DNA from: Christensenella minuta
GTDB taxonomy: Bacteria; Bacillota; Clostridia; Christensenellales; Christensenellaceae
Assembly (NCBI RefSeq): GCF_003628755.1
Contig: NZ_CP029256.1
Location: 1,259,585-1,323,584 of the forward strand
Direction of reading: 5' to 3'
Length of the DNA: 64,000 nucleotides
Shown piece by piece: positions 4,345-54,578 of the stretch. The position numbers were made by a program, and so were the translations under genes. Numbering within the stretch: the first letter of the stretch is position 1; each line of letters begins with the position of its first letter. Below the pieces are notes generated by a model that saw only the letters and a program-made list of their open reading frames with translations, searched no databases and was not told where the DNA came from.

Positions 4345-4744
4345 CATAGCCACCGCATTATGGCTATGTACCTGACCGACTCATTTCCTAATCGGTCATA
4401 GCAATATTTGTTCTCAACACCCCTTGCCAAGCAAAATGCTTATGGGAAGTCACTAAGGAACAGACTGCTTATCTGTATCATAGGATTCTAACCTCTGCCG
4501 GGTACTCCGCCAGCTCCGTAGAGAAGTATCATTATCATTCTGACTGTCATCGCCATATCAGGAGCAACCTAATACTCATAGCCGGAATTCTCGCTATTCT
4601 GAAATACAGAAATCACGGCGTACCTGCTAAAGTGGCTATCATCAGAAATAAAGTCTTAGTGAATGACTTATTCAATTTTCAAGCGAAAAGGCTTCCGTTT
4701 TTGCTATCTGGAATGAACCCCTTCACTCATTTGGACAAAGGGGT
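4345..4744. other. Hairpin-dense non-coding region upstream of parA
   Basis: No credible gene occupies the roughly 500 bp between parA and the next gene. It contains a series of short perfect inverted repeats: CATAGCCA/TGGCTATG (4345-4368), GACCGA/TCGGTC (4374-4397), AAGC/GCTT (4429-4441), ACAGA/TCTGT (4460-4476), TTCTG/CAGAA (4597-4611), AAGTC/GACTT (4651-4669) and ACCCCTT/AAGGGGT (4717-4744). Such a layout could be an origin of transfer, a replication or partition site, or a structured 5' leader of parA. I cannot tell which from sequence alone. Confidence 0.5.
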
Positions 4745-43877: not shown

Positions 43878-44564
43878 TCAGAAGCCCAGATAAAGCAAAT
43901 ATAATCCAAGGATCAGGATTACTGCGCCAAGAACGGCTTTGACCCATTTCCCCGCTTTCGCAAACCGCGCCGAGCCGCCGAGCTGGTTCACCGTTCCGAT
44001 TCCCGCTCCCACGGCGACGATTAATATGCTGTTTCCCACCGAATAGGTAACCAGCATAGCGATTCCCACGCCGAGGTCGATTCCGCTTGAAATCACCGCA
44101 AGAATCGCCGCCAGCACGGGCGTCACGCAAGGGGAAGCAAACGCACCTCCGAGAAGGCCAAGCAGGAACGCGCCCACGCCGCCCTTTTTAGTCGTGGTCT
44201 GCCGCACGCCGCAGGCCGGAAACAACTTTACAACGTCCCACATCACTAGCGCCATAAACACCATCAGCGCCCCTAGCGCCAGATACCACCAGCTTCCCAT
44301 AGCGGAAAGCTGCTGGCCAAGCAGCGCAAGCACCGTGCCGATAGCGGTAAAGGTCACCGTCATCCCCAGGCAAAACAGCAGGGAATAGATGAGCGCTGTT
44401 TTTCTGCCGCTCCTATTTCCGCCGACATAACCGATGACAAGCGGAAAGGTAGAGAGGGAACACGGAGTGAAGGAGGTCAGCACGCCCGCCGCCAGCGCCG
44501 CCAGCGGCCCGATCCACAAGTTTTGCGAAATCATGTTTCCAAGCTGTGCGAGAAGCTCCGTCAT
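43878..44564 (-). CDS. ccdA: CcdA/DsbD-type thiol electron transporter
   Basis: The 228-residue protein has six predicted membrane helices. Its two redox-active cysteines sit in the typical places, SFTPCSLSTFPLVIGY (helix 1) and ASPCVTPVLAA (helix 4). CcdA passes electrons from cytoplasmic thioredoxin across the membrane to an extracytoplasmic thioredoxin-like partner. That partner is encoded directly upstream and the genes overlap by 4 bp. No cytochrome c maturation genes are present, so general thiol reduction is more likely. About 30 residues past helix 6 are absent, normal for short CcdA. Confidence 0.92.
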   Translation of the reverse strand: MTELLAQLGNMISQNLWIGPLAALAAGVLTSFTPCSLSTFPLVIGYVGGNRSGRKTALIYSLLFCLGMTVTFTAIGTVLALLGQQLSAMGSWWYLALGALMVFMALVMWDVVKLFPACGVRQTTTKKGGVGAFLLGLLGGAFASPCVTPVLAAILAVISSGIDLGVGIAMLVTYSVGNSILIVAVGAGIGTVNQLGGSARFAKAGKWVKAVLGAVILILGLYLLYLGF

Positions 44565-45013
44565 GCGCCTTCCCCCGCCATATCCGGGTTCGCAAATGCG
44601 TCTTCGATAAAGGCCGTAAGCGCCTCCTTCGTCGCCGCGCCCGGATAATATGTAACGGGAGTTCCCGACGCGTCGAGGATCATATAAACGGGAACGCTCG
44701 ACACGCCAAATTCCTGCGCGATTTTTTTCTGTTCATCGACATTCACCGTTACAAACGTAATTTTACCATCGTATTCCCGCCTGAGTTCCTTAAGGACCGG
44801 TTCCATCTCTTTGCAATAGGGGCACCAGTCGGCCGTAAAATCGATAAAAACCGGAAGGCCGTCCACAGTCCACTCCTGTACTGCCTGCGCGGGTTCCACA
44901 TCCGCCGCTTTTTCTTCCTGCGAGGTTTTTATCAAAAAAATGCACAATACAAGCAAAAGAACCACCGTTATGATCGTTACTTTGCCTGCCGTGCCCGCTA
45001 GAAATTTTTTCAT
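44561..45013 (-). CDS. Membrane-anchored thioredoxin-like protein
   Basis: The 150-residue protein has an N-terminal membrane anchor (about 10-28) and a thioredoxin fold facing outside, with active site FTADWCPYCKEME (C-P-Y-C) and the cis-Pro loop SSVPVYMIL. It ends GEGA where the ccdA start overlaps. With CcdA it forms an outside thiol-reduction module. The start has AAAGGAAGATTGA. Upstream, about 110 bp away, ends the structured RNA candidate. Confidence 0.93.
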   Translation of the reverse strand: MKKFLAGTAGKVTIITVVLLLVLCIFLIKTSQEEKAADVEPAQAVQEWTVDGLPVFIDFTADWCPYCKEMEPVLKELRREYDGKITFVTVNVDEQKKIAQEFGVSSVPVYMILDASGTPVTYYPGAATKEALTAFIEDAFANPDMAGEGA

Positions 45014-45123: not shown

Positions 45124-45288
45124 GAAAAGTCGAAGAGGCGAAGCAAAAGCCTCGCCTCTTCCGGACAGATAGCTGCTCTTTTGCGCGCAGACGCGCGCTC
45201 CGCTCGGCGGAATTTCCCCGGAGCACGCTTTTCGGCTGAGTTCCAGTGGAATGGCGCGGCAGCAAGATGCGCCTGATTTATTATTATA
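45124..45288 (-). ncRNA. Candidate structured RNA downstream of the dead TnpB-like gene
   Basis: The 295 bp after the TnpB-like stop contain no credible gene. They begin with a perfect TATAAT box on the minus strand (45288-45283). Then come a 9-bp helix CGTGCTCCG/CGGAGCGCG (45227-45219 with 45202-45194) and an alternative GCGCGC/GCGCGC helix (45198-45193 with 45188-45183) that competes with it. A 13-bp hairpin follows, GAAGAGGCGAGGC/GCTTCGCCTCTTC (45161-45149 with 45144-45132), then CTTTTCC. A transcript of about 150 nt is expected. Placement immediately 3' of a TnpB-like gene is where omega RNA or guide RNA is encoded. Identity as a guide RNA is inference; no -35 box is clear. Confidence 0.5.
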
Positions 45289-45308: not shown

Positions 45309-46877
45309 CTATTCTTCATCCACAATGGTAATCTCTTCGCGAACGTTGCGCAGGTTTGCGAAGCGCTTGCGGTAGCTGATTTCCCGGATAGATATCCCCT
45401 CCGGAAAATCTTTGCCCGCCTTTATATCCTTTGCCGCTTTTTCCGCATAGCGGAAAAAATCCCGGATACCCTCCTGCGTGGGGCGCGCCAGATAAGACAG
45501 GCCCAGGATATCGTTGTGGATCAGTATCCCCCCGTCCGTTTGTTTCGCATAAAACAAAAGCGCCGTACCGTTATATTTCAACAGCCGCCGCGCGGCATTC
45601 AGAGGCCCTATCGTTTCAATTTCCCCGGCAAAGCCGCATTTAACACATATCATTCTGCCGCCCGCAAAGCGGTTTTTCTGTGTATTCGAGCCGCACCGCG
45701 GGCAGGCGGTGAAAATACCCCTCGCGCTCACGAATACGGGCTTTTCAAGCCCCCTCAGCTCCGCTTTATAGGCCACCATCGACACCATACGGTTGAATTC
45801 GCCCGCTGTAAGCTGCGCCGCCTCCCTGCCACAGGTAAGCTTGTCCCCGATCTCTCCCATGCGGTATGTGATAATGGCGCTCTTGTTTTTCCATGCAATT
45901 TCCACCAGCTCGTTTGCCGCCGCATGCATTCCGTTTTTAGTGCAAATATCCTTCCTGCGGGGAATTCCGCCTTCCGCAAGAACCTTTCCCTGAAGGTCCG
46001 TCACCGCGTAGCGCGCCGCGTCCTTCAGGCTGCGGGTGATTCCCATATATGTCTCGTTTTTCCCTTCCTGTGCGCTTTCGCACGCCACGTTTATGGAAAG
46101 GTAATAGTCCCCGTTCTTCTTCAGCAGGCGCGCCGTTTTAAAAATCCTCGGGTTTTCCAGCCCCGCGCGCAACACAGTCTCTTGTGCTTTGCCAAAGGAA
46201 AGCGGTACGACGATATACCGCTCGCGTTTATTATCCCGCTCGAGCGGCTCGTGTCCTTCCGCAACATAATATAGCTCCGCATCTCCGCGTACGATCCCTC
46301 CGCGGCGGTTTTCGTCCCGGACGCCCATAAGATAGAGTTTTGCATAGAACCTGCCGTGCGCTTTATCGTACAGCAGGCAGTAATCGCGGTTTTTCGCATA
46401 CCGCCCGAAAAGCAGCGGTTTCCGTATGCCGAGGCCGTTATAGAGGCGTTCGAGCCGCAGGCGCAGCTCCTCCCGGCCGATCTCACCTGCGTCAAACGCG
46501 TCAAGCGCGGCGGAGAACTGCCGGTCAAAATCGGCTTCTTCCAATATCTGCGGATAGCGCGCTCCCTTCTGCGCTTTACGCAGAGACAGCCACGCGACCA
46601 TCGCCATCGCATAATCAAGCTTCAGGGCGTCTTTGAACGGCTGTACGCCGAATTCGTTGAGCCTGTTCATCAGTTCTTTACCGAGAAGGCCGGTGATACG
46701 GCGTGTGAGGTAAGCGCCCCCCTCCCGCATCTCCCGCATGATAGGCTCCACGTTTTCCTTGGTATGCTCGAACAAATAGGAAAGCGCACGGTTATACCGT
46801 AAAACCGCCCGGTCGATCAGCTCCCGTTTTGCCGCCGAAGGATTATGAAGTTTGAGAACAAGCGTCCTTACCACCAT
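45309..46877 (-). CDS. Nuclease-dead TnpB/Cas12-like protein in the hydrogenase operon
   Basis: The 522-residue protein starts like TnpB (MVVRTLVLKLHNPSAAKREL, YNRALSYLF). It has the strand ARLLKKNGDYYLSINVACES before RuvC-I, and the TnpB zinc ribbon with Cys392/395 and Cys411/414 (ACPRCGSNTQ, MICVKCGFAG) followed by N427-A-A-R. All three RuvC acids are gone: GID is GIT (Thr281), the RuvC-II Glu is Thr337 (AIITYR), and the Asp of D-x-N-A-A is Pro425 (PLNAA). The RuvC-I to II interval is short, and an extra 90-residue C-terminal tail is present. The start is 1 bp after the SpoIIE-type phosphatase stop. Codon use is host-like. No TnpA or IS ends were seen. Likely a DNA-binding, RNA-guided regulator; inferred. 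Confidence 0.72.
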   Translation of the reverse strand: MVVRTLVLKLHNPSAAKRELIDRAVLRYNRALSYLFEHTKENVEPIMREMREGGAYLTRRITGLLGKELMNRLNEFGVQPFKDALKLDYAMAMVAWLSLRKAQKGARYPQILEEADFDRQFSAALDAFDAGEIGREELRLRLERLYNGLGIRKPLLFGRYAKNRDYCLLYDKAHGRFYAKLYLMGVRDENRRGGIVRGDAELYYVAEGHEPLERDNKRERYIVVPLSFGKAQETVLRAGLENPRIFKTARLLKKNGDYYLSINVACESAQEGKNETYMGITRSLKDAARYAVTDLQGKVLAEGGIPRRKDICTKNGMHAAANELVEIAWKNKSAIITYRMGEIGDKLTCGREAAQLTAGEFNRMVSMVAYKAELRGLEKPVFVSARGIFTACPRCGSNTQKNRFAGGRMICVKCGFAGEIETIGPLNAARRLLKYNGTALLFYAKQTDGGILIHNDILGLSYLARPTQEGIRDFFRYAEKAAKDIKAGKDFPEGISIREISYRKRFANLRNVREEITIVDEE

Positions 46878-46878
46878 C

Positions 46879-48051
46879 TTAGCAATACTCGATCTCTACG
46901 TCTTTGCCCATCTGCCGGAGGATCTTGGCGATATCCTTCACCATGCGCAGCTTGAGGCTGAGGTCGATCGGAAGGTCCGGGTTCTGGTGCGCGGGGTTGG
47001 CTGCGCGTCCCACCGTAAAGTGCGCGCTTGTGCATTCCTCCAAGAGCAGCTTTGCAAGCCGCGACGCGCCGTCCTGCTTGAATATATCGAACAGTTCTTC
47101 CATGTCGCTTCCTTCCGCCATATATTTCTGCATGATTTCATAGGTTTTCGCAAGCGTCACGACGCCTTCCGTCACAAGGTCGATCCCTTCGATCATTCCC
47201 GTGGGCGGCACGCCCGCATCCTTATAATCGATTTTGACGCGGAGGTCGCGGCCGGAAACACGGCTTACAATCTGCGACGTCGTGCCGCCGCACACCACCT
47301 TTACCCCGTCGGCCTCCAGCAGCCTGTCGACCAGCTCCCGGTCGCGCGAGGAATCCACCGGCGGCCCCACCATGATAAAAGCCGGCTGCGCATGCCGTAT
47401 TTTTGTGGTCACAAACGTCGTATCGTCCCCCGGCCGGCCGTCGTAAAGCGAATTGCACGCGGAAAGCAGAAGCTTTGTCATCGCGCGCGCCGGCATCTCT
47501 TTGCGGTATGCCCGGCAGGCGTATTCCACAATGTTATCCCGCTGCCATCCAAAATTCAGCGTCTGGCCAACCCCTGCATGGATCGCCCCGTCTGAAAAAG
47601 CGACGCACATGTCGTCCTCCTGCATAGAAAAACGGCTTTCCAGCACCTTTTTATCGCCAATTTCAATCTCCGTTTTTTCAACCGGGACTTCCTTCCCGCC
47701 GCGCAGGATAATGGCCTGCGGATTATCAAACTCCACCATATGCGCTTTTCCCGCGGTATTCACGCGCAGGATGGTGAACGTGCAATACGCCAGCCCGCGT
47801 TCCGAGCAAACGGGCAGCGTGGACGCAACCGTCTCCACCGTTTCATAGATATCCGCACCTTCGGAAAGCATGGTTGCAGCGATCTTGCTGGTGAGCGTCG
47901 AAAGGATGTTCGCCTTTACCCCGCTGCCAAGACCATCCGCCAGAACAATGGTGGTCACGTCACCTTTGCGCACGATCTCCACCTTGTCGCCGCACAATTC
48001 CTCTCCATGCTTGAACAGGCTTTCGCCCGCCGTCTCAATAAATACGCTCAT
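46879..48051 (-). CDS. SpoIIE/PP2C-type serine phosphatase
   Basis: The 390-residue soluble protein has a PP2C (SpoIIE) phosphatase domain with metal-binding motifs TIVLADGLGSGVKAN, CVAFSDGAIHAG and GRPGDDTTFV. The region about 240-390 has the sequence VVCGGTTSQIVSR and helical segments that I do not recognise. Such phosphatases are commonly paired with a sensory [FeFe]-hydrogenase in Clostridia and are thought to relay its redox or H2 signal. The start MSVFIETAGES (48051) has AGGAGAGCGAAG and overlaps the sensor gene by 17 bp. The substrate phosphoprotein is unknown. The TnpB-like gene follows after 1 bp. Confidence 0.87.
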   Translation of the reverse strand: MSVFIETAGESLFKHGEELCGDKVEIVRKGDVTTIVLADGLGSGVKANILSTLTSKIAATMLSEGADIYETVETVASTLPVCSERGLAYCTFTILRVNTAGKAHMVEFDNPQAIILRGGKEVPVEKTEIEIGDKKVLESRFSMQEDDMCVAFSDGAIHAGVGQTLNFGWQRDNIVEYACRAYRKEMPARAMTKLLLSACNSLYDGRPGDDTTFVTTKIRHAQPAFIMVGPPVDSSRDRELVDRLLEADGVKVVCGGTTSQIVSRVSGRDLRVKIDYKDAGVPPTGMIEGIDLVTEGVVTLAKTYEIMQKYMAEGSDMEELFDIFKQDGASRLAKLLLEECTSAHFTVGRAANPAHQNPDLPIDLSLKLRMVKDIAKILRQMGKDVEIEYC

Positions 48052-49747
48052 CTTCGCTCTCCTGGATATACTTTTTGAGGTTTGTGAGCGCAAGCTTCGT
48101 CTCCGCCGTCGTTTCCCCAAGCAGGCTTGCGATTTCCTGTGCTACGCGCATCTGTTTGTTGATGACTTCCTGGGTGACCTCCATGGTTTCCGCGCGCATT
48201 TCGCTGATTTTCTTCTGCTGGTGTTCATCCTCCGTGATATCTTTGATGAGCAGCAGGTACATTGAATTGTCCTTGATGAAAATCGTGGACTGCTTTACCG
48301 TAATCCCGAGATCCTGGTAAAACACCTTTCGGTCAAAAATGTTTTCCCCTGTCTCGCGTACTTCGTCGATATCATCGCAGTCGATAATCATGGATACCGG
48401 GCGGCCTACATAATTCCTTTCATTCAGGTGGAACAGTTCCGCCGCGGCCTTGTTATATTCCATCAGGTTGAAATCGCTGTCAAGGATGACGATCGCATTC
48501 GGCGTATTATCCAGCACCACGTTGGAGATACTTTCCGCTTTTTCGCGCATAAACGGCAGGCACATCCTGATATCCGCCTTACCCTGCAGGACAGCAATCG
48601 CTTTATCGCGGCAGGTCGGGTATCCGCAGCCGCCGCAATTGAGTATTTTGTCCTCGCTCGTCTTGCCCATGCGCACAAATACCTGCTGTATCTCCTCGTC
48701 GCTGGGGATACGGCGGTGAAGGGAGCGGTCGCGGTACTGCCGTCCGATCCCCGTTTTTGCGTCCTCTGTCAAAGGCGCGCTGCACGCGGTGCGGTTTTTG
48801 GCATACTGCAGCGTGCGGTCCTTAATGTGCAGGAAGGGAATATCGATTTCCTTTGCGCCCGGCCCGCCGAGACAGCTGCCCGGGCAAGCGTTCATTTCAA
48901 GGAAGAAATTTTCCAGTTCTCCCGATTTGAGCGAATCCAGCACCTCGGCGCAGCGGTCGATCCCGTCCACAGCCACACATTTATAGGCCTGGCGGATGGG
49001 CCGGTCGAGCGTCTGTATGATCCCCCCCGGGATCGGATACAAACGGTTCACGGTTGCTTTCATCTCGCGCACGTCCGGGTCCTCCGCCTCAAGGTCCACG
49101 CCTTCCGCTTCAAGCCACTGCATCAATTCGTCAAACAGCACCACCGCGTCGATTGCTCCGTCCGATTCCTGTGCCTCGTGTATTTTCGAGATGCACGGCC
49201 CTACAAAAACAGTCTTGATGCGCGGGCCATAGACCTCCTTCATCATCTTGCCGTGCGCCGTCATAGGCGCGTCTACGGGCGCGAGGTAAGGGATCAGCTC
49301 CGGATAATATTTCTCTACCAGAAGCACGAGCGTCGGGCAGCATGTTGTGATAATGTTTTTCATCTTATGCTCACGCATCAGCTCCATGAAATTCTGCGAA
49401 ACCTTCGCCGCCCCGATCGAGGTTTCCTCCACACCCGTAAAGCCGAGTTTTTTCAGCGCCGATGAAATTTTCGGGAAAGTCGCATTTTTATAGCAGCTTG
49501 CAAAGGACGGAGCCACCGAAACATATACCTTGTCTCCGTTTTTGATGAATCCCTTGACCTTATCTAGGCTGCTGTTCACATATTTCGCGTTCTGCGGGCA
49601 GGCCAGAAAACAATGCCCGCAGAGAATACATTCCTTCTCCGTGATTTCCGCCTGCTCATTTTTAAAGGCGATTGATTTTACCTGACAGCTTCTGATACAT
49701 TTATAACAGTTTTTACAGTTTGCTTCTTTAAACTGTATAATACTCAT
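48035..49747 (-). CDS. Sensory-type [FeFe]-hydrogenase with PAS domain (group C-like)
   Basis: The 570-residue protein has two N-terminal [4Fe-4S] motifs (CKNCYKCIRSC, CILCGHCFLAC). An H-cluster domain follows with TTCCPTLV, VGPCISKIHE and NACPGSCLGGPG, then a four-Cys Fe-S domain (NCGGCGYPTCRDKA to IRMC) and a PAS domain (about 425-535) ending in a coiled coil. The altered P1 (TTCCPT instead of TSCCPA) and P3 motifs and the PAS domain are typical of sensory [FeFe]-hydrogenases rather than catalytic ones. It probably senses H2 or redox state and passes this to the phosphatase encoded downstream, whose start overlaps its end. Confidence 0.88.
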   Translation of the reverse strand: MSIIQFKEANCKNCYKCIRSCQVKSIAFKNEQAEITEKECILCGHCFLACPQNAKYVNSSLDKVKGFIKNGDKVYVSVAPSFASCYKNATFPKISSALKKLGFTGVEETSIGAAKVSQNFMELMREHKMKNIITTCCPTLVLLVEKYYPELIPYLAPVDAPMTAHGKMMKEVYGPRIKTVFVGPCISKIHEAQESDGAIDAVVLFDELMQWLEAEGVDLEAEDPDVREMKATVNRLYPIPGGIIQTLDRPIRQAYKCVAVDGIDRCAEVLDSLKSGELENFFLEMNACPGSCLGGPGAKEIDIPFLHIKDRTLQYAKNRTACSAPLTEDAKTGIGRQYRDRSLHRRIPSDEEIQQVFVRMGKTSEDKILNCGGCGYPTCRDKAIAVLQGKADIRMCLPFMREKAESISNVVLDNTPNAIVILDSDFNLMEYNKAAAELFHLNERNYVGRPVSMIIDCDDIDEVRETGENIFDRKVFYQDLGITVKQSTIFIKDNSMYLLLIKDITEDEHQQKKISEMRAETMEVTQEVINKQMRVAQEIASLLGETTAETKLALTNLKKYIQESEDERIY

Positions 49748-49949: not shown

Positions 49950-50192
49950 TCAAATTTTCGCTAAAACCTGGTTTTTGAAAAACTCCCCGACGTTATCCGT
50001 ATTTACGGAAAAGACCTCATCCCCGATCTGTACGGAAACCGCGTCTGTGCAGTGGCCGAGGCAAAATACGCCCGTAAGCTCTACCCGGTCCCCGAGCCCC
50101 GACTCCTCGATCATCTCCTGCAGCTCGCTCACCACGTTGTACGACCCCTTCAGGTGGCATGCGCTCCCGATACAAATGTTGATTGTCATCAT
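49950..50192 (-). CDS. Thioredoxin-like [2Fe-2S] ferredoxin
   Basis: The 80-residue protein is a single NuoE-C-type domain with four cysteines: ICIGSACHLKG and GVFCLGHCTDAVSVQIGD (pattern C-x5-C ... C-x3-C). It probably binds a [2Fe-2S] cluster and carries electrons between the hydrogenase HydA and the sensor protein. Its start overlaps the hydA stop by 4 bp (MMTINICIG; an ATGATG start). About 200 bp without a gene separate it from the sensor gene. Such small proteins are standard in clostridial hydrogenase clusters. Confidence 0.88.
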   Translation of the reverse strand: MMTINICIGSACHLKGSYNVVSELQEMIEESGLGDRVELTGVFCLGHCTDAVSVQIGDEVFSVNTDNVGEFFKNQVLAKI

Positions 50193-51907
50193 TTTACGTT
50201 CTCCTCCCCTTTATAGTAATTCACATGCAGCAGCTCATGAATTTTATTCTTTAAAATACCTCCGTACAGGGCCATCATGACAGGATTTTCCTCCGAACGC
50301 TTCACCTGCGACAGCTTATCCGCATCGTAAAGCCCTTTCGCACGTTCTTCCTTTCCTTCCCTGCGCGTAAACGGCTGGCCCGCCCCCGCAATACAGCCGC
50401 CCGGGCATGCCATGACCTCTACAAAATCGTATTCTGCCTCACCGATCTCGATCTGTTCGATCAGCTTCTCCGCGTTGGCAAGGCCGTTTACCACGGCGAT
50501 CTTGACGCGGCCGCTGCCGTATGGGATGCTCGCCTCTTTGATGCCTTCCATGCCGCGCACACCCGTATATGCTATATTATGCAACATATTATTGCTTTTG
50601 TCATCTACAACCCTGCGTATCACCGCCTCTGCGACGCCGCCCGTCACGCCGAAGATCACGCCCGCACCGGAGGTGATTCCAAACGGCATATCCGCAGCCT
50701 CGGGATCGATATCCTCGAACACGATCCCTGCCTGTTTCAGGATGCTCGCGAACTCCTGCGTAGTAATAACGCCGTCCGTATCGCGTGAGCCGTCCCCGTA
50801 AACGAACTCCGGGCGTACCTGCTCGTCCTTTTTCGCCGTGCACGGCATGATCGCAAACACCACCGTTTCCTTGCCGTCCACCTCCTGCACCTGCTTGAAA
50901 TGCTCCTTGATGACCGCCGAGAAAATCTGCATCGGCGATTTGCAGGTGGAAATCTGCTCCACCAATTCCGGGTGCGCATGCTCCGCATATTTCACCCATG
51001 CCGGGCAGCAGGACGTAAAGAGGGGGAGCTTCGCCCCCGCTTTATATTTCTTCACAAACTCTTTGGATTCCTCCATCACGGTAAGGTCGGCGCCCATAGT
51101 GGTGTCATACACCTCGTCCACCCCCATTTTCCGCAGTGCGCCCACGATCTTGCCCGCGACATTTGTGCCCGGTTCGAGGCCGAACTCGTCCCCGAGCGCC
51201 ACGCGCACGGCCGGTGCAAACTGCACCACCACACGTTTGGAATCGTCGTAGATCGCATCCCAGAATTTCTGCGTACAGTTGCGGATCACGATCGCGCCCG
51301 TCGGACATACCGACGCGCACTGTCCGCAATTAACGCAGTTCGTTTCAGAGAGGGGTTTATTAAAGGCTGTAGAGACCGTCATGTTCGATCCGCGGTGCGC
51401 AAAATCAATCGCCCCCACATTCTGTATCTCCGAGCACATGCGCACGCAATCGCCGCACAGGATGCACTTGGAAGGATCGCGGATGATGGAAAGCGCCGAA
51501 TCATCGATCCCCTCCTGCTTTTTCGTATTCTCGAAGCGCACGCTGTCGATCCCAAAACGGAGCGCCAACTCCTGCAGGCGGCATTTCCCGTTTTTAGGGC
51601 ACGTCGTACAGTCGCGGCAATGGCTCGCGAGCAGCAGCTCGAGGATCATTTTCCGGTAACGGAAAAGCTGCGGCGTGTTGGTTTTGATCTTCATCTTGTC
51701 ACGCGGAGGCGTGGAGCACGAGGCGATGATACCGCCCCATTCGTCCTCCACTACGCACATGCGGCATGCGCCGTAGATGGAAAGCTCCGAATAATAACAG
51801 AAGGTGGGCAGGTCGATCCCCGCCTTACGAATCACCGCAAGGATATTCTGTTCCTCGTCGAAATTGACGATCTGCCCGTCTATAATCATGTGTTTCTTAT
51901 CAGTCAT
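50189..51907 (-). CDS. hydA: [FeFe]-hydrogenase catalytic subunit HydA
   Basis: HydA evolves H2 from NADH and reduced ferredoxin with HydB and HydC. The 572-residue protein has an N-terminal [2Fe-2S] domain (CYYSELSIYGACRMCVVE), a His-Cys cluster (CRDCTTCPKNGKC) and two [4Fe-4S] motifs (CILCGDCVRMC, CVNCGQCASVCP). The H-cluster motifs are P1 FTSCCPAWV, P2 MPCTAKKDE and P3 MACPGGCIAGAG. All H-cluster cysteines are present. The start has AAGAAAGGAAATAAGTGGT. It stands in the order hydC-hydB-hydA. Confidence 0.96.
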   Translation of the reverse strand: MTDKKHMIIDGQIVNFDEEQNILAVIRKAGIDLPTFCYYSELSIYGACRMCVVEDEWGGIIASCSTPPRDKMKIKTNTPQLFRYRKMILELLLASHCRDCTTCPKNGKCRLQELALRFGIDSVRFENTKKQEGIDDSALSIIRDPSKCILCGDCVRMCSEIQNVGAIDFAHRGSNMTVSTAFNKPLSETNCVNCGQCASVCPTGAIVIRNCTQKFWDAIYDDSKRVVVQFAPAVRVALGDEFGLEPGTNVAGKIVGALRKMGVDEVYDTTMGADLTVMEESKEFVKKYKAGAKLPLFTSCCPAWVKYAEHAHPELVEQISTCKSPMQIFSAVIKEHFKQVQEVDGKETVVFAIMPCTAKKDEQVRPEFVYGDGSRDTDGVITTQEFASILKQAGIVFEDIDPEAADMPFGITSGAGVIFGVTGGVAEAVIRRVVDDKSNNMLHNIAYTGVRGMEGIKEASIPYGSGRVKIAVVNGLANAEKLIEQIEIGEAEYDFVEVMACPGGCIAGAGQPFTRREGKEERAKGLYDADKLSQVKRSEENPVMMALYGGILKNKIHELLHVNYYKGEENVK

Positions 51908-52077: not shown

Positions 52078-53952
52078 TCAAAATTGTTCAACAACCGCGC
52101 CAAAGCTGCACGCCTCTTCGCATGCGCCGCACTTGATGCACTTTTCCGCATCGATCACAAACGGCTTCTTGATCTCTCCGCTGATCGCGTTTACCGGGCA
52201 CTGGCGCGCGCATTTGCTGCATCCTTTGCACTTTTCTTCCACGATTACATATTGTTTCATTGCCTGGCAGTTCTTCGCCGGACATTTCTTATCCACAACA
52301 TGCGCAAGATATTCGTCCCGGAAATATTTCATCGTACTAATCACAGGCGACGGCGCTGTCTTGCCAAGGCCGCACAATGCGGTCCTCGCGATCATGTCCG
52401 CGAGCTCCTCAAGCATATCGAGGTCTTCCTTTTCCCCCTTGCCCGCAACGATGCGTTCCAGTATCTCGAGCATCCGCAGCGTACCCTCGCGGCAGGGGAC
52501 GCACTTCCCGCAGGATTCGTTCTGTGTGAAATTCATAAAGAACCGCGCCACCTCGACCATGCAGTTATCTTCGTCCATTACCACAAGGCCGCCGGAACCG
52601 ATCATCGCGCCTTTTTTCTTCAGGGAGTCAAAGTCCATAGGCATATCGAGATGCTCTTCCGTCATACAGCCGCCGGACGGTCCGCCGATCTGCACCGCTT
52701 TGAATTTCTTGCCATTTTTGATGCCGCCGCCAATATCGAAGATGACTTCGCGCAGCGTCGTGCCCATCGGCACTTCTATAAGGCCCGTATTATTGACGTT
52801 TCCCGTAAGGGCGAACGCTTTCGTGCCCGGACTGCTCTCCGTTCCCATACTGCGGAACCAGCCCGAACCGTTCAGGATAATCATGGGGATATTGGCGTAG
52901 GTCTCCACGTTCGACAGCACCGTAGGCTTGCCAAACAATCCCTGCTCTACCGTACGCGGCGGTTTTACCCTCGGCATACCGCGGTTGCCTTCGATGGAAG
53001 CGGTAAGCGCACTTCCTTCGCCGCATACGAACGCGCCCGCGCCCTGGTTGATCCTCAGGGTGAAATCGAACCCGCTGTCCAGGATATTATCCCCCAGAAG
53101 CCCCTGCTTTTCCGCCGCGGCAATTGCCGTTTGCAGGCGTTTTACCGCCAGCGGATATTCCGCGCGGACATAGATATAACCTTCGTGCGCGCCCGTCGCG
53201 ATACCGGCGATCATCATTCCCTCGATCATCTTATGCGGATCGCCCTCCATGATGCTCCGGTCCATAAACGCGCCCGGATCTCCCTCGTCGCCGTTGCACA
53301 CCACGAATTTTCGGACTTCCTTTTGCTTCGCCACCTGCTGCAGCTTCCGTCCCGTGGGGAAACCGCCGCCGCCGCGCCCGCGCAGGCCGGAATCCATCAC
53401 TTCCTGCACGATATCGTCCGTTTTCATATCAAAGAGCGCCTTTGCAACGGCCTGATAGCCGCCGCGCGCAATATATTCTTCGATCGCCTCCGCATCCGTG
53501 TGCCCACAGTTGGAAAGCACCATGCGCGTCTGCTTTTTGTAAAAAGGGATTTCCTCTTCCGCAGCATATGCCTTACCGTCCTGATGGAACAGGAGGCGTT
53601 CTACCGGCTCGTCACCCTTGAGGCTCTTCTCAAGTATCTCTTCGCAGTCCTCCGGCTTCACCTTCACATACAGCCAGCCAAACGGCTCGATACGAAGGAG
53701 CGGTCCCATTTCGCAAAATCCGTGGCATCCGCTCTTTTTAAACGCGATCTCTTCATGCGGCTCCTTTTTCAGCTCCACCGATACGGGAAGCCCCGCTTCC
53801 TGTGCAAGGTCCTTCAGGCGGCTGAATATTTCGAGCGAACCGCCCGCGACGCAGCCGGTCCCCGCGCAGACCAACACCTTCTTGTACTGCGCCTCCATAG
53901 ATTTCCTGTATTGGTTTTTAAATTTATTTAATTCTTTTACGTTGTGTATCAT
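52078..53952 (-). CDS. hydB: Hydrogenase NADH-binding subunit HydB (NuoF-like)
   Basis: The 624-residue protein has an N-terminal thioredoxin-like [2Fe-2S] domain (VLVCAGTGCVAGG to GCHGFCEMGP) and the NuoF domain. FMN/NADH motifs are GLRGRGGGGFPTGRK and CNGDEGDPGAFMDR; the cluster motif is ESCGKCVPCREG. A C-terminal ferredoxin domain has two [4Fe-4S] sites (CKGCSKCARQCP, CIKCGACEEAC). I start at MIHNVKELNK (53952), which has GGAAGGAACGAAC; a longer frame upstream would run through hydC. It oxidises NADH and passes electrons to HydA, with bifurcation using ferredoxin being known for this family. Confidence 0.95.
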   Translation of the reverse strand: MIHNVKELNKFKNQYRKSMEAQYKKVLVCAGTGCVAGGSLEIFSRLKDLAQEAGLPVSVELKKEPHEEIAFKKSGCHGFCEMGPLLRIEPFGWLYVKVKPEDCEEILEKSLKGDEPVERLLFHQDGKAYAAEEEIPFYKKQTRMVLSNCGHTDAEAIEEYIARGGYQAVAKALFDMKTDDIVQEVMDSGLRGRGGGGFPTGRKLQQVAKQKEVRKFVVCNGDEGDPGAFMDRSIMEGDPHKMIEGMMIAGIATGAHEGYIYVRAEYPLAVKRLQTAIAAAEKQGLLGDNILDSGFDFTLRINQGAGAFVCGEGSALTASIEGNRGMPRVKPPRTVEQGLFGKPTVLSNVETYANIPMIILNGSGWFRSMGTESSPGTKAFALTGNVNNTGLIEVPMGTTLREVIFDIGGGIKNGKKFKAVQIGGPSGGCMTEEHLDMPMDFDSLKKKGAMIGSGGLVVMDEDNCMVEVARFFMNFTQNESCGKCVPCREGTLRMLEILERIVAGKGEKEDLDMLEELADMIARTALCGLGKTAPSPVISTMKYFRDEYLAHVVDKKCPAKNCQAMKQYVIVEEKCKGCSKCARQCPVNAISGEIKKPFVIDAEKCIKCGACEEACSFGAVVEQF

Positions 53953-54014
53953 GTTCGTTCCTTCCGTAATTTGAGTCTCCGGGTCCGCATTTCCATAAGA
54001 GCAGAGGCCTGCCC

Positions 54015-54479
54015 CTATTTCAGCGTGTCGATCAGTTCGCATGCCGAATCGGGCGTCATCGTCGGGTATACTTTGTCGTTCACCGTAAGCACGGGGGCAA
54101 GCCCGCATGCGCCGAGGCATGAGACCGTTTCGACAGTGTACAGCATATCGTCCGTCGTTTTCTTCTGCTCGGAAAGCCCGAGTTTTTTACGGAGGGCTTC
54201 AAGGATCGGGATCGACTTCCTGACATGGCATGCCGTCCCGTCACATATTTTGATTACATACTTTCCCTTCGGTTCCAGGGAGAAATTCTCGTAAAAAGTT
54301 GCGATGGAGTATATCTTCGCCTCGCCTACATGCAGTTTTTCCGCCACATAGCAAAGCGCTTCCTCGGGAAGATAACGGTATTCCTTTTGTATCGCCTGCA
54401 AAATGGGAATGATTTCCGATTTTTTGGGATGCTCCTTAAGAATCCCGTCCAAAGTCTGCTTCATCTCTGCGTTGTCCAA
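54015..54479 (-). CDS. hydC: Hydrogenase [2Fe-2S] subunit HydC (NuoE-like)
   Basis: The 154-residue protein has a helical N-terminus (EIIPILQAIQKEYRYLPEEA) and a thioredoxin-like fold with CDGTACHVRK and SCLGACGLAPV, four cysteines for a [2Fe-2S] cluster. I choose TTG 54479 as start: AGGAGG lies eight bases upstream. The first upstream ATG (54524) lacks a site and overlaps the Rex palindrome. It is the first gene of the hydrogenase operon, 62 bp before hydB. Confidence 0.93.
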   Translation of the reverse strand: MDNAEMKQTLDGILKEHPKKSEIIPILQAIQKEYRYLPEEALCYVAEKLHVGEAKIYSIATFYENFSLEPKGKYVIKICDGTACHVRKSIPILEALRKKLGLSEQKKTTDDMLYTVETVSCLGACGLAPVLTVNDKVYPTMTPDSACELIDTLK

Positions 54480-54523
54480 ATCCAAGACCTCCTGATTTTC
54501 ATTTCGCCCCCCGGCGCCGGACA

Positions 54524-54541
54524 TTGTTAAATATTTAACAT
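54524..54541. promoter_or_regulatory. Rex-like operator of the hydrogenase operon
   Basis: TTGTTAAATATTTAACAT matches the clostridial Rex consensus TTGTTAA-N4-TTAACAA at 17 of 18 specified positions or better (final A is T). It lies 9 bp downstream of the -10 box, where bound Rex would block transcription until NADH rises. No rex gene is in the window. Confidence 0.82.
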
Positions 54542-54549
54542 GTCTTTCT

Positions 54550-54578
54550 ATTGTATCTTTTTTCACAAAAAATATCAA
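54550..54578 (-). promoter_or_regulatory. Promoter of hydCBA
   Basis: Minus-strand TTGATA (54578-54573), 17-bp spacer, TACAAT (54555-54550), about 70 bp before the TTG start of hydC. Confidence 0.85.

What the first reader, a model, noticed from the sequence alone, without database searches (positions are those of the whole stretch)
45309..46877. TnpB/Cas12-like protein with all three RuvC catalytic residues lost, embedded in a hydrogenase-sensor operon
Seen: TnpB-like N-terminus, intact four-Cys zinc ribbon and NAA motif, but GID to GIT (Thr281), RuvC-II Glu to Thr337 and D-x-N-A-A to P-L-N-A-A (Pro425). The gene starts one base after a SpoIIE-type phosphatase stop and has host-like codon use. 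No transposase or IS ends are visible. Known: nuclease-dead TnpB derivatives (TldR) act as RNA-guided transcription factors. Inference: here a dead TnpB has been captured as the output of a sensory [FeFe]-hydrogenase and phosphatase. Its 522 residues, short RuvC-I/II interval and 90-residue tail make it unlike described TldR proteins.
Basis: partly seen in the sequence, partly recalled or inferred. Interest (0 to 1): 0.93.

Follow-up and report, generated by a model that had tools for sequence, protein, structure and literature searches.

The report
TnpB-derived RNA-protein pair beside hydrogen sensor
In gut and other anaerobic bacteria, a DNA-cutting protein that came from a jumping gene has lost its cutting site but kept its own folded RNA, and both are always found next to a hydrogen-gas sensor, which makes them a good candidate for the missing switch that lets these microbes adjust fermentation to hydrogen.

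Summary
The 522-aa protein (45309-46877, minus strand) is a TnpB/Cas12f homologue with a nuclease site predicted dead: RuvC-I Asp is T281, RuvC-II Glu is Y338. The model matches AsCas12f (Z 22.7) and ISDra2 TnpB (Z 17.5). It is the only TnpB-like gene in this Christensenella genome, has no Y1 transposase, and is under purifying selection (dN/dS about 0.1). All 18 full-length relatives found (5 families, 8 genera of Clostridia) lie just downstream of a HydS-SpoIIE hydrogen-sensor pair; in three, adhE sits between. New here: all 18 genes are followed by one conserved pseudoknotted RNA, present once per genome, supported by compensatory changes, absent from Rfam and from 12 HydS-SpoIIE loci lacking the gene. 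It resembles a TnpB omega-RNA scaffold, but a hairpin starts 0-13 nt after it, where a guide should be, and no guide target was found. Best reading: a TldR-like domesticated TnpB ribonucleoprotein acting as output of the hydrogen sensor. RNA-guided DNA binding is inferred, not shown; a guide-less complex remains possible.

The parts
45309..46877 (-). RuvC-inactivated TnpB/Cas12f-like protein, 522 aa (T281, Y338, E421 at the catalytic positions; zinc ribbon C392/C395/C411/C414)
45167..45278 (-). Conserved pseudoknotted RNA (omega-RNA-like scaffold): P1 45273-45269/45257-45253, P2 45211-45207/45203-45199, P3 45198-45193/45188-45183, pseudoknot 45263-45259 with 45176-45172, then UAUCU
45129..45166 (-). 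Stable hairpin (-25.8 kcal/mol) occupying the position where a guide would be, followed by TTTT; probably a terminator
46879..48051 (-). SpoIIE-type serine/threonine phosphatase, immediately upstream
48035..49747 (-). HydS: sensory [FeFe]-hydrogenase with FeS and PAS domains
49950..50192 (-). Thioredoxin-like [2Fe-2S] ferredoxin
50189..51907 (-). [FeFe]-hydrogenase catalytic subunit (group A)
52078..54120 (-). NuoF-like hydrogenase subunit (HydB)
54015..54578 (-). NuoE-like hydrogenase subunit (HydC)

Best explanation
A TnpB was captured by a hydrogen-sensing locus and lost nuclease activity but kept its RNA partner. HydS senses H2 through its H-cluster and signals through its PAS domain to the SpoIIE-type phosphatase. 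The phosphatase, directly or through a phosphoprotein, controls a ribonucleoprotein made of this protein and the pseudoknotted RNA encoded right after it. The ribonucleoprotein then represses or activates fermentation genes (trimeric hydrogenase, adhE) by binding nucleic acid without cutting. SHOWN by computation: TnpB/Cas12f fold; loss of the RuvC-I Asp (18/18) and RuvC-II Glu (17/18); purifying selection; 18/18 linkage to HydS-SpoIIE; 18/18 pairing with one structured RNA per genome. INFERRED: protein-RNA binding, DNA binding, phosphatase control and the target genes.
For: Fold: AF2 pLDDT 82.4; Foldseek 1.7e-12 to AsCas12f; Z 22.7 (AsCas12f) and 17.5 (ISDra2 TnpB) over residues 1-440. Full-length BLASTP to the intact Pseudoalteromonas TnpB, E 1e-27. 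Catalytic positions. dN/dS 0.08-0.17 in nine pairs. Synteny; adhE lies between SpoIIE and the gene in three f53 genomes. RNA: present 18/18; 94.6% of cells paired against 82.8% in shuffles, 12 pairs changed on both sides, pseudoknot 100% paired with 2 double-changed pairs; a model built without Christensenella finds all six Christensenella RNAs at E 3e-7 to 8e-5 and nothing in 12 HydS-SpoIIE loci without the gene; exactly one match per genome in 18 genomes. Literature: deleting hfsA or hfsB (HydS homologue) raises adhE transcripts 2-3-fold by an unknown route (PMC5707799); in R. albus a cluster with HydS, phosphatase and adhE falls 111-fold at low H2, and the phosphatase 'may modify downstream regulators' (PMC6776011).
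Against: A hairpin begins 0-13 nt after the scaffold in all 18 (strong in 17), leaving no normal 16-20 nt guide. No conserved target was found in locus or adh promoters, nor genome-wide for the Christensenella sequence. Most HydS-SpoIIE loci (93 of 107 in the class sample, comparing) lack this gene, so it is an optional output. Nothing here measures binding or regulation.
Confidence: 0.6

Rival explanations
1. Guide-less ribonucleoprotein: the RNA is a fixed scaffold plus terminator hairpin with no targeting guide. The complex acts by protein contacts, by structure-specific nucleic-acid binding, or by controlling its own operon's mRNA.
For: Only 0-5 nt separate scaffold and hairpin in Christensenella, f57 and f52. 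No target match found. The post-scaffold sequence differs between genera while the scaffold is conserved. The segment between RuvC-I and RuvC-II is shortened.
Against: In f53 and f84, 8-13 nt are free, enough for a short guide. The first 8 nt (GTCCGGAA) are identical in three Christensenella species. A TldR seed region of guide nt 1-6 is reported (PMC13418256), so short guides are conceivable.
Confidence: 0.3
2. Still an active RNA-guided nuclease of an unusual kind, using E421 and other acids such as the invariant D345.
For: E421 is acidic in 17/18 and D345 is invariant in 18/18; L046 keeps the RuvC-II Glu.
Against: The RuvC-I Asp, essential for metal binding in this fold, is T, V, G, A or S in 18/18; no transposon or CRISPR context.
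Confidence: 0.04
3. A decaying IS200/605 remnant that happens to sit after SpoIIE.
For: TnpB ancestry; loss of catalytic residues.
Against: Full-length ORF with dN/dS about 0.1, the same place in five families, a co-conserved RNA, no IS ends or transposase.
Confidence: 0.01
4. The protein is conserved for a role of its own in the operon (for example binding the phosphatase) and the RNA is only a conserved 3' UTR of the operon.
For: The RNA directly follows the stop codon and ends in a terminator-like hairpin.
Against: The RNA is absent from 12 HydS-SpoIIE loci without the gene, follows the gene also where adhE is inserted upstream, and has the position and pseudoknot of a TnpB guide scaffold.
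Confidence: 0.1

Closest known systems
TldR (TnpB-like nuclease-dead repressors; fliC- and csrA-associated clades, PMC13418256)
   Same: TnpB homologue with inactivated RuvC, fixed beside non-transposon genes, structured RNA encoded right after the gene.
   Different: Linked to an H2-sensor operon; about 490-540 aa with an extra C-terminal region of about 80 aa; a hairpin sits where the guide should be; no target found; RuvC-III acid mostly kept.
Long-form TnpB of Pseudoalteromonas spongiae plasmid (WP_100915931) and phage J2-1
   Same: Full-length homology (E 1e-27 over residues 2-429) including the extended middle region, and a C-terminal extension.
   Different: Intact GID, IED and AD catalytic motifs; on mobile DNA; not linked to hydrogenases.
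Cas12f (AsCas12f, CnCas12f1) and ISDra2 TnpB
   Same: Fold over residues 1-440.
   Different: Those are active RNA-guided nucleases with a guide; no C-terminal 80-residue tail of this kind.
HydS/HfsB sensory [FeFe]-hydrogenase with SpoIIE-type phosphatase (R. albus HydS; Thermoanaerobacterium hfsABCD)
   Same: HydS and phosphatase pair, often with adhE nearby.
   Different: Those published loci are not reported to include a TnpB-like gene or the RNA.

Membership tests
TnpB / Cas12f superfamily | TnpB/Cas12f fold with split RuvC and zinc ribbon | tested here: met
TnpB / Cas12f superfamily | Catalytic D-E-D triad | tested here: not met
   T281/Y338/E421; RuvC-I non-acidic 18/18
TnpB / Cas12f superfamily | Association with an IS200/605 or IS607 element | tested here: not met
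   no other TnpB, no Y1 transposase in the genome, no inverted repeats; IS607-type serine recombinase was not searched for
TldR | TnpB homologue with inactivated RuvC | tested here: met
   (by sequence; activity not assayed)
TldR | Stable linkage to non-transposon genes | tested here: met
   18/18 with HydS-SpoIIE
TldR | Structured guide-RNA scaffold encoded next to the gene | tested here: met
   (structure and position; binding not assayed)
TldR | Guide complementary to a host promoter next to a TAM | tested here: inconclusive
   no normal-length guide, no conserved target in the promoters and genomes searched
TldR | Falls in a published TldR clade | not tested
   the 2024 TldR survey and its sequences were not held
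TldR | RNA-guided DNA binding and repression | not testable with these tools
   needs RIP-seq, ChIP-seq and reporter assays
HydS-type sensory hydrogenase operon | [FeFe] H-cluster domain and PAS protein next to a SpoIIE phosphatase | tested here: met

The most novel reading that the evidence does not exclude
A TnpB that has lost both cutting and RNA-guided targeting but still depends on its omega-RNA: a guide-less ribonucleoprotein, with a terminator hairpin in the guide's place, used as the phosphatase-controlled output of a hydrogen-gas sensor.
Probability: 0.3. Interest if true: 0.93.

Novelty: new variant of a known kind. Interest (0 to 1): 0.86.

Why it matters
How H2-sensing hydrogenases (HydS/HfsB) control fermentation genes such as adhE is an open question in rumen, gut and biofuel bacteria. 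This locus supplies a specific candidate output and makes the question testable. It also adds a host-encoded lineage, held in five bacterial families, in which a TnpB-derived protein and its RNA appear to serve metabolic sensing rather than transposon maintenance or defence. The missing guide raises the question whether TnpB ribonucleoproteins can work without RNA-guided targeting. Christensenella passes H2 to human-gut methanogens (PMC7002349), so H2-responsive control there bears on gut ecology.

Tried and rejected
1) Finding a guide target: exact matches of 8 nt or more in the loci and adh promoters, and all GTCCGGAARR sites in three Christensenella genomes, with flanks read for two, gave no conserved promoter site and no enrichment over the reversed pattern. 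One 11-nt match upstream of another gene in L044 and one in L155 were not conserved and were treated as chance. 2) Rfam gave no match to the RNA above any gathering score. 3) Viral contigs gave no relative. Plasmids and phages gave only partial matches of about 25%, which led to the Pseudoalteromonas TnpB. 4) A G815 hit that first looked like a sister family is a broken pseudogene away from HydS. 5) I first accepted P425 and 'three lost residues'; alignment to intact TnpBs showed that the RuvC-III position is E421. 6) The first structure model, from six sequences, was poor (pLDDT 62.8) and was replaced. 7) A sigma-70 scan found no promoter in front of the RNA, although Christensenella has a TATAAT-like run there. 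8) I suspected a yybP-ykoY riboswitch upstream of terC in f57; Rfam did not support it.

Full report
OBSERVATION. The ORF is real: 522 aa on the minus strand at 45309-46877, starting one base after the SpoIIE stop. Family scans give weak, sub-threshold TnpB/Cas12f matches confined to residues about 313-432: guided_TnpB 1.2e-8, PADLOC Cas12f 1.2e-8, Pfam Cas12f1-like TNB 2e-4. Codon use is like that of its neighbours. In the 2.97-Mb genome it is the only TnpB-like gene, there is no Y1 transposase, and no inverted repeats flank it.

RELATIVES AND CONTEXT. All six genomes held for the genus (Christensenella; L007 is C. intestinihominis) carry it, the other five at 50-83% identity. A profile search of 391 class genomes added 12 full-length relatives in four further families. 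In all 18 the gene lies on the same strand behind HydS and the SpoIIE phosphatase. It is directly next to SpoIIE in 15 and separated from it by adhE (bifunctional aldehyde/alcohol dehydrogenase, NF010378) in three f53 genomes. Gaps to the upstream gene run from a 4-bp overlap to 236 bp. Conversely, 107 of the same 391 genomes have the SpoIIE orthologue, and 14 of these carry the TnpB-like gene. In 12 HydS-SpoIIE loci without it, the slot holds a second [FeFe]-hydrogenase (TIGR04105 type in the two tested) or nothing related. Outside Clostridia the profile finds only ordinary TnpBs of about 370 aa and one broken gene, at 82 bits or less, against 243 bits or more for the best segment of each family member (earlier profile). 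A SpoIIE tree puts the carriers in two groups separated by non-carriers, so the gene was either lost repeatedly or transferred with its locus.

SELECTION. Nine pairs give dN/dS 0.08-0.17; a tenth was saturated at synonymous sites. The gene diverges faster than SpoIIE and HydS but is clearly maintained.

FOLD AND ACTIVE SITE. A 24-sequence model has pLDDT 82.4 and pTM 0.59. Foldseek's best PDB match is AsCas12f (1.7e-12), and the fifty matches listed are all Cas12, TnpB or related effectors. VIA-align gives Z 22.7 to AsCas12f and 17.5 to ISDra2 TnpB over residues 1-440; the last 80 residues are unmatched in most of these structures. Alignment with six intact TnpBs, with PDB sequences and with the intact Pseudoalteromonas TnpB (E 1e-27) places RuvC-I at T281, RuvC-II at Y338 and RuvC-III at E421. 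RuvC-I is non-acidic in 18/18 and RuvC-II in 17/18; RuvC-III is Glu or Asp in 17/18. Because the RuvC-I Asp is essential in this nuclease fold (established knowledge), the protein is predicted not to cut.

THE RNA. Aligning the DNA after the stop codon showed a strongly conserved element in every group. It is present in 18/18 and folds to the same topology: P1 with a 10-11 nt loop, a variable stem absent in f57, P2 with a 3-nt loop, P3, an A-rich linker, then GCAGCUAUCU. The P1 loop (GCUGC) can pair with GCAGC to form a pseudoknot that varies in step: GCUAC/GUAGC in L044 and L052, GCUGU/ACAGC in L046. On the 12 sequences outside Christensenella, 94.6% of cells pair (82.8% in shuffles), 12 pairs change on both sides (reached in 0 of 500 shuffles), and sliding the partners destroys the signal. 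A covariance model built from those 12 finds all six held-out Christensenella RNAs (34-45 bits) and nothing in 12 HydS-SpoIIE loci lacking the gene. In 18 whole genomes it finds exactly one match each, always beside the gene. Christensenella has its own compensatory changes in P1 and in the variable stem. No Rfam family matches. Its place (3' of a tnpB-like gene, same strand) and a pseudoknot near the guide position are features of TnpB omega-RNA/reRNA scaffolds (pseudoknots are needed for ISFba1 TnpB activity, PMC11061315). The identification as an omega-RNA derivative rests on architecture, not on sequence homology or binding data.

THE MISSING GUIDE. After UAUCU a stable hairpin, usually with a U-rich tail, begins within 0-5 nt in Christensenella, f57 and f52, and within 8-13 nt in f53 and f84 (weak in L046, -5.4 kcal/mol). 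That leaves no normal guide. Searches for targets in the hydrogenase and adh promoters and across Christensenella genomes found nothing conserved. Either guides are unusually short, or targeting has been lost.

MECHANISM. In Thermoanaerobacterium, deleting the HydS homologue raises adhE transcripts, and the route from sensor to adhE is unknown (PMC5707799). In R. albus the HydS/phosphatase/adhE cluster changes 111-fold with H2 (PMC6776011). The TnpB-like protein with its RNA is a candidate for that missing output in the genomes that have it. Shown here: ancestry, predicted inactivation, selection, linkage and the RNA. Inferred: complex formation, nucleic-acid binding, phosphatase control and targets.

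NOVELTY. Dead TnpBs recruited as TldRs are known (PMC13418256), so this is a new variant of a known kind. A search of open papers for TnpB together with hydrogenase found no report of this linkage, but the 2024 TldR survey was not held, so prior listing of this clade cannot be excluded.

Noticed in passing
L120:3548-4999 (phage J2-1, MF370964): Long-form TnpB with intact RuvC motifs, not annotated in the phage record; a 62% identical copy sits on a P. spongiae plasmid.
   Followed up: partly
L108, L110, L113, L115, L116: In HydS-SpoIIE loci without the TnpB-like gene, another [FeFe]-hydrogenase (about 480-490 aa) lies downstream; the two tested (L110, L113) are TIGR04105 type, so the slot after SpoIIE seems exchangeable.
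   Followed up: partly
L117:4477-5217 (G815): Degraded relative of the family, interrupted by stops and not next to HydS, on a short contig.
   Followed up: partly
L047:10610-10800 and orthologous f57 loci: About 120 nt strongly conserved between the RNA and the TerC-like gene; looks like a leader RNA but has no Rfam match at gathering.
   Followed up: partly
window 4478-4535, minus strand: Rfam pemK RNA (64.8 bits).
   Followed up: no
window 43878-45013: DsbD/CcdA-like and thioredoxin-like genes lie between the RNA and a histidine-kinase module in this genome and L008, but are missing at this place in other Christensenella genomes (e.g. L010).
   Followed up: no
window protein residues R282 and D345: Invariant in all 18 relatives; D345 is not shared by the intact TnpBs aligned, and R282 by only some. 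Their role beside the inactivated RuvC pocket is unknown.
   Followed up: no
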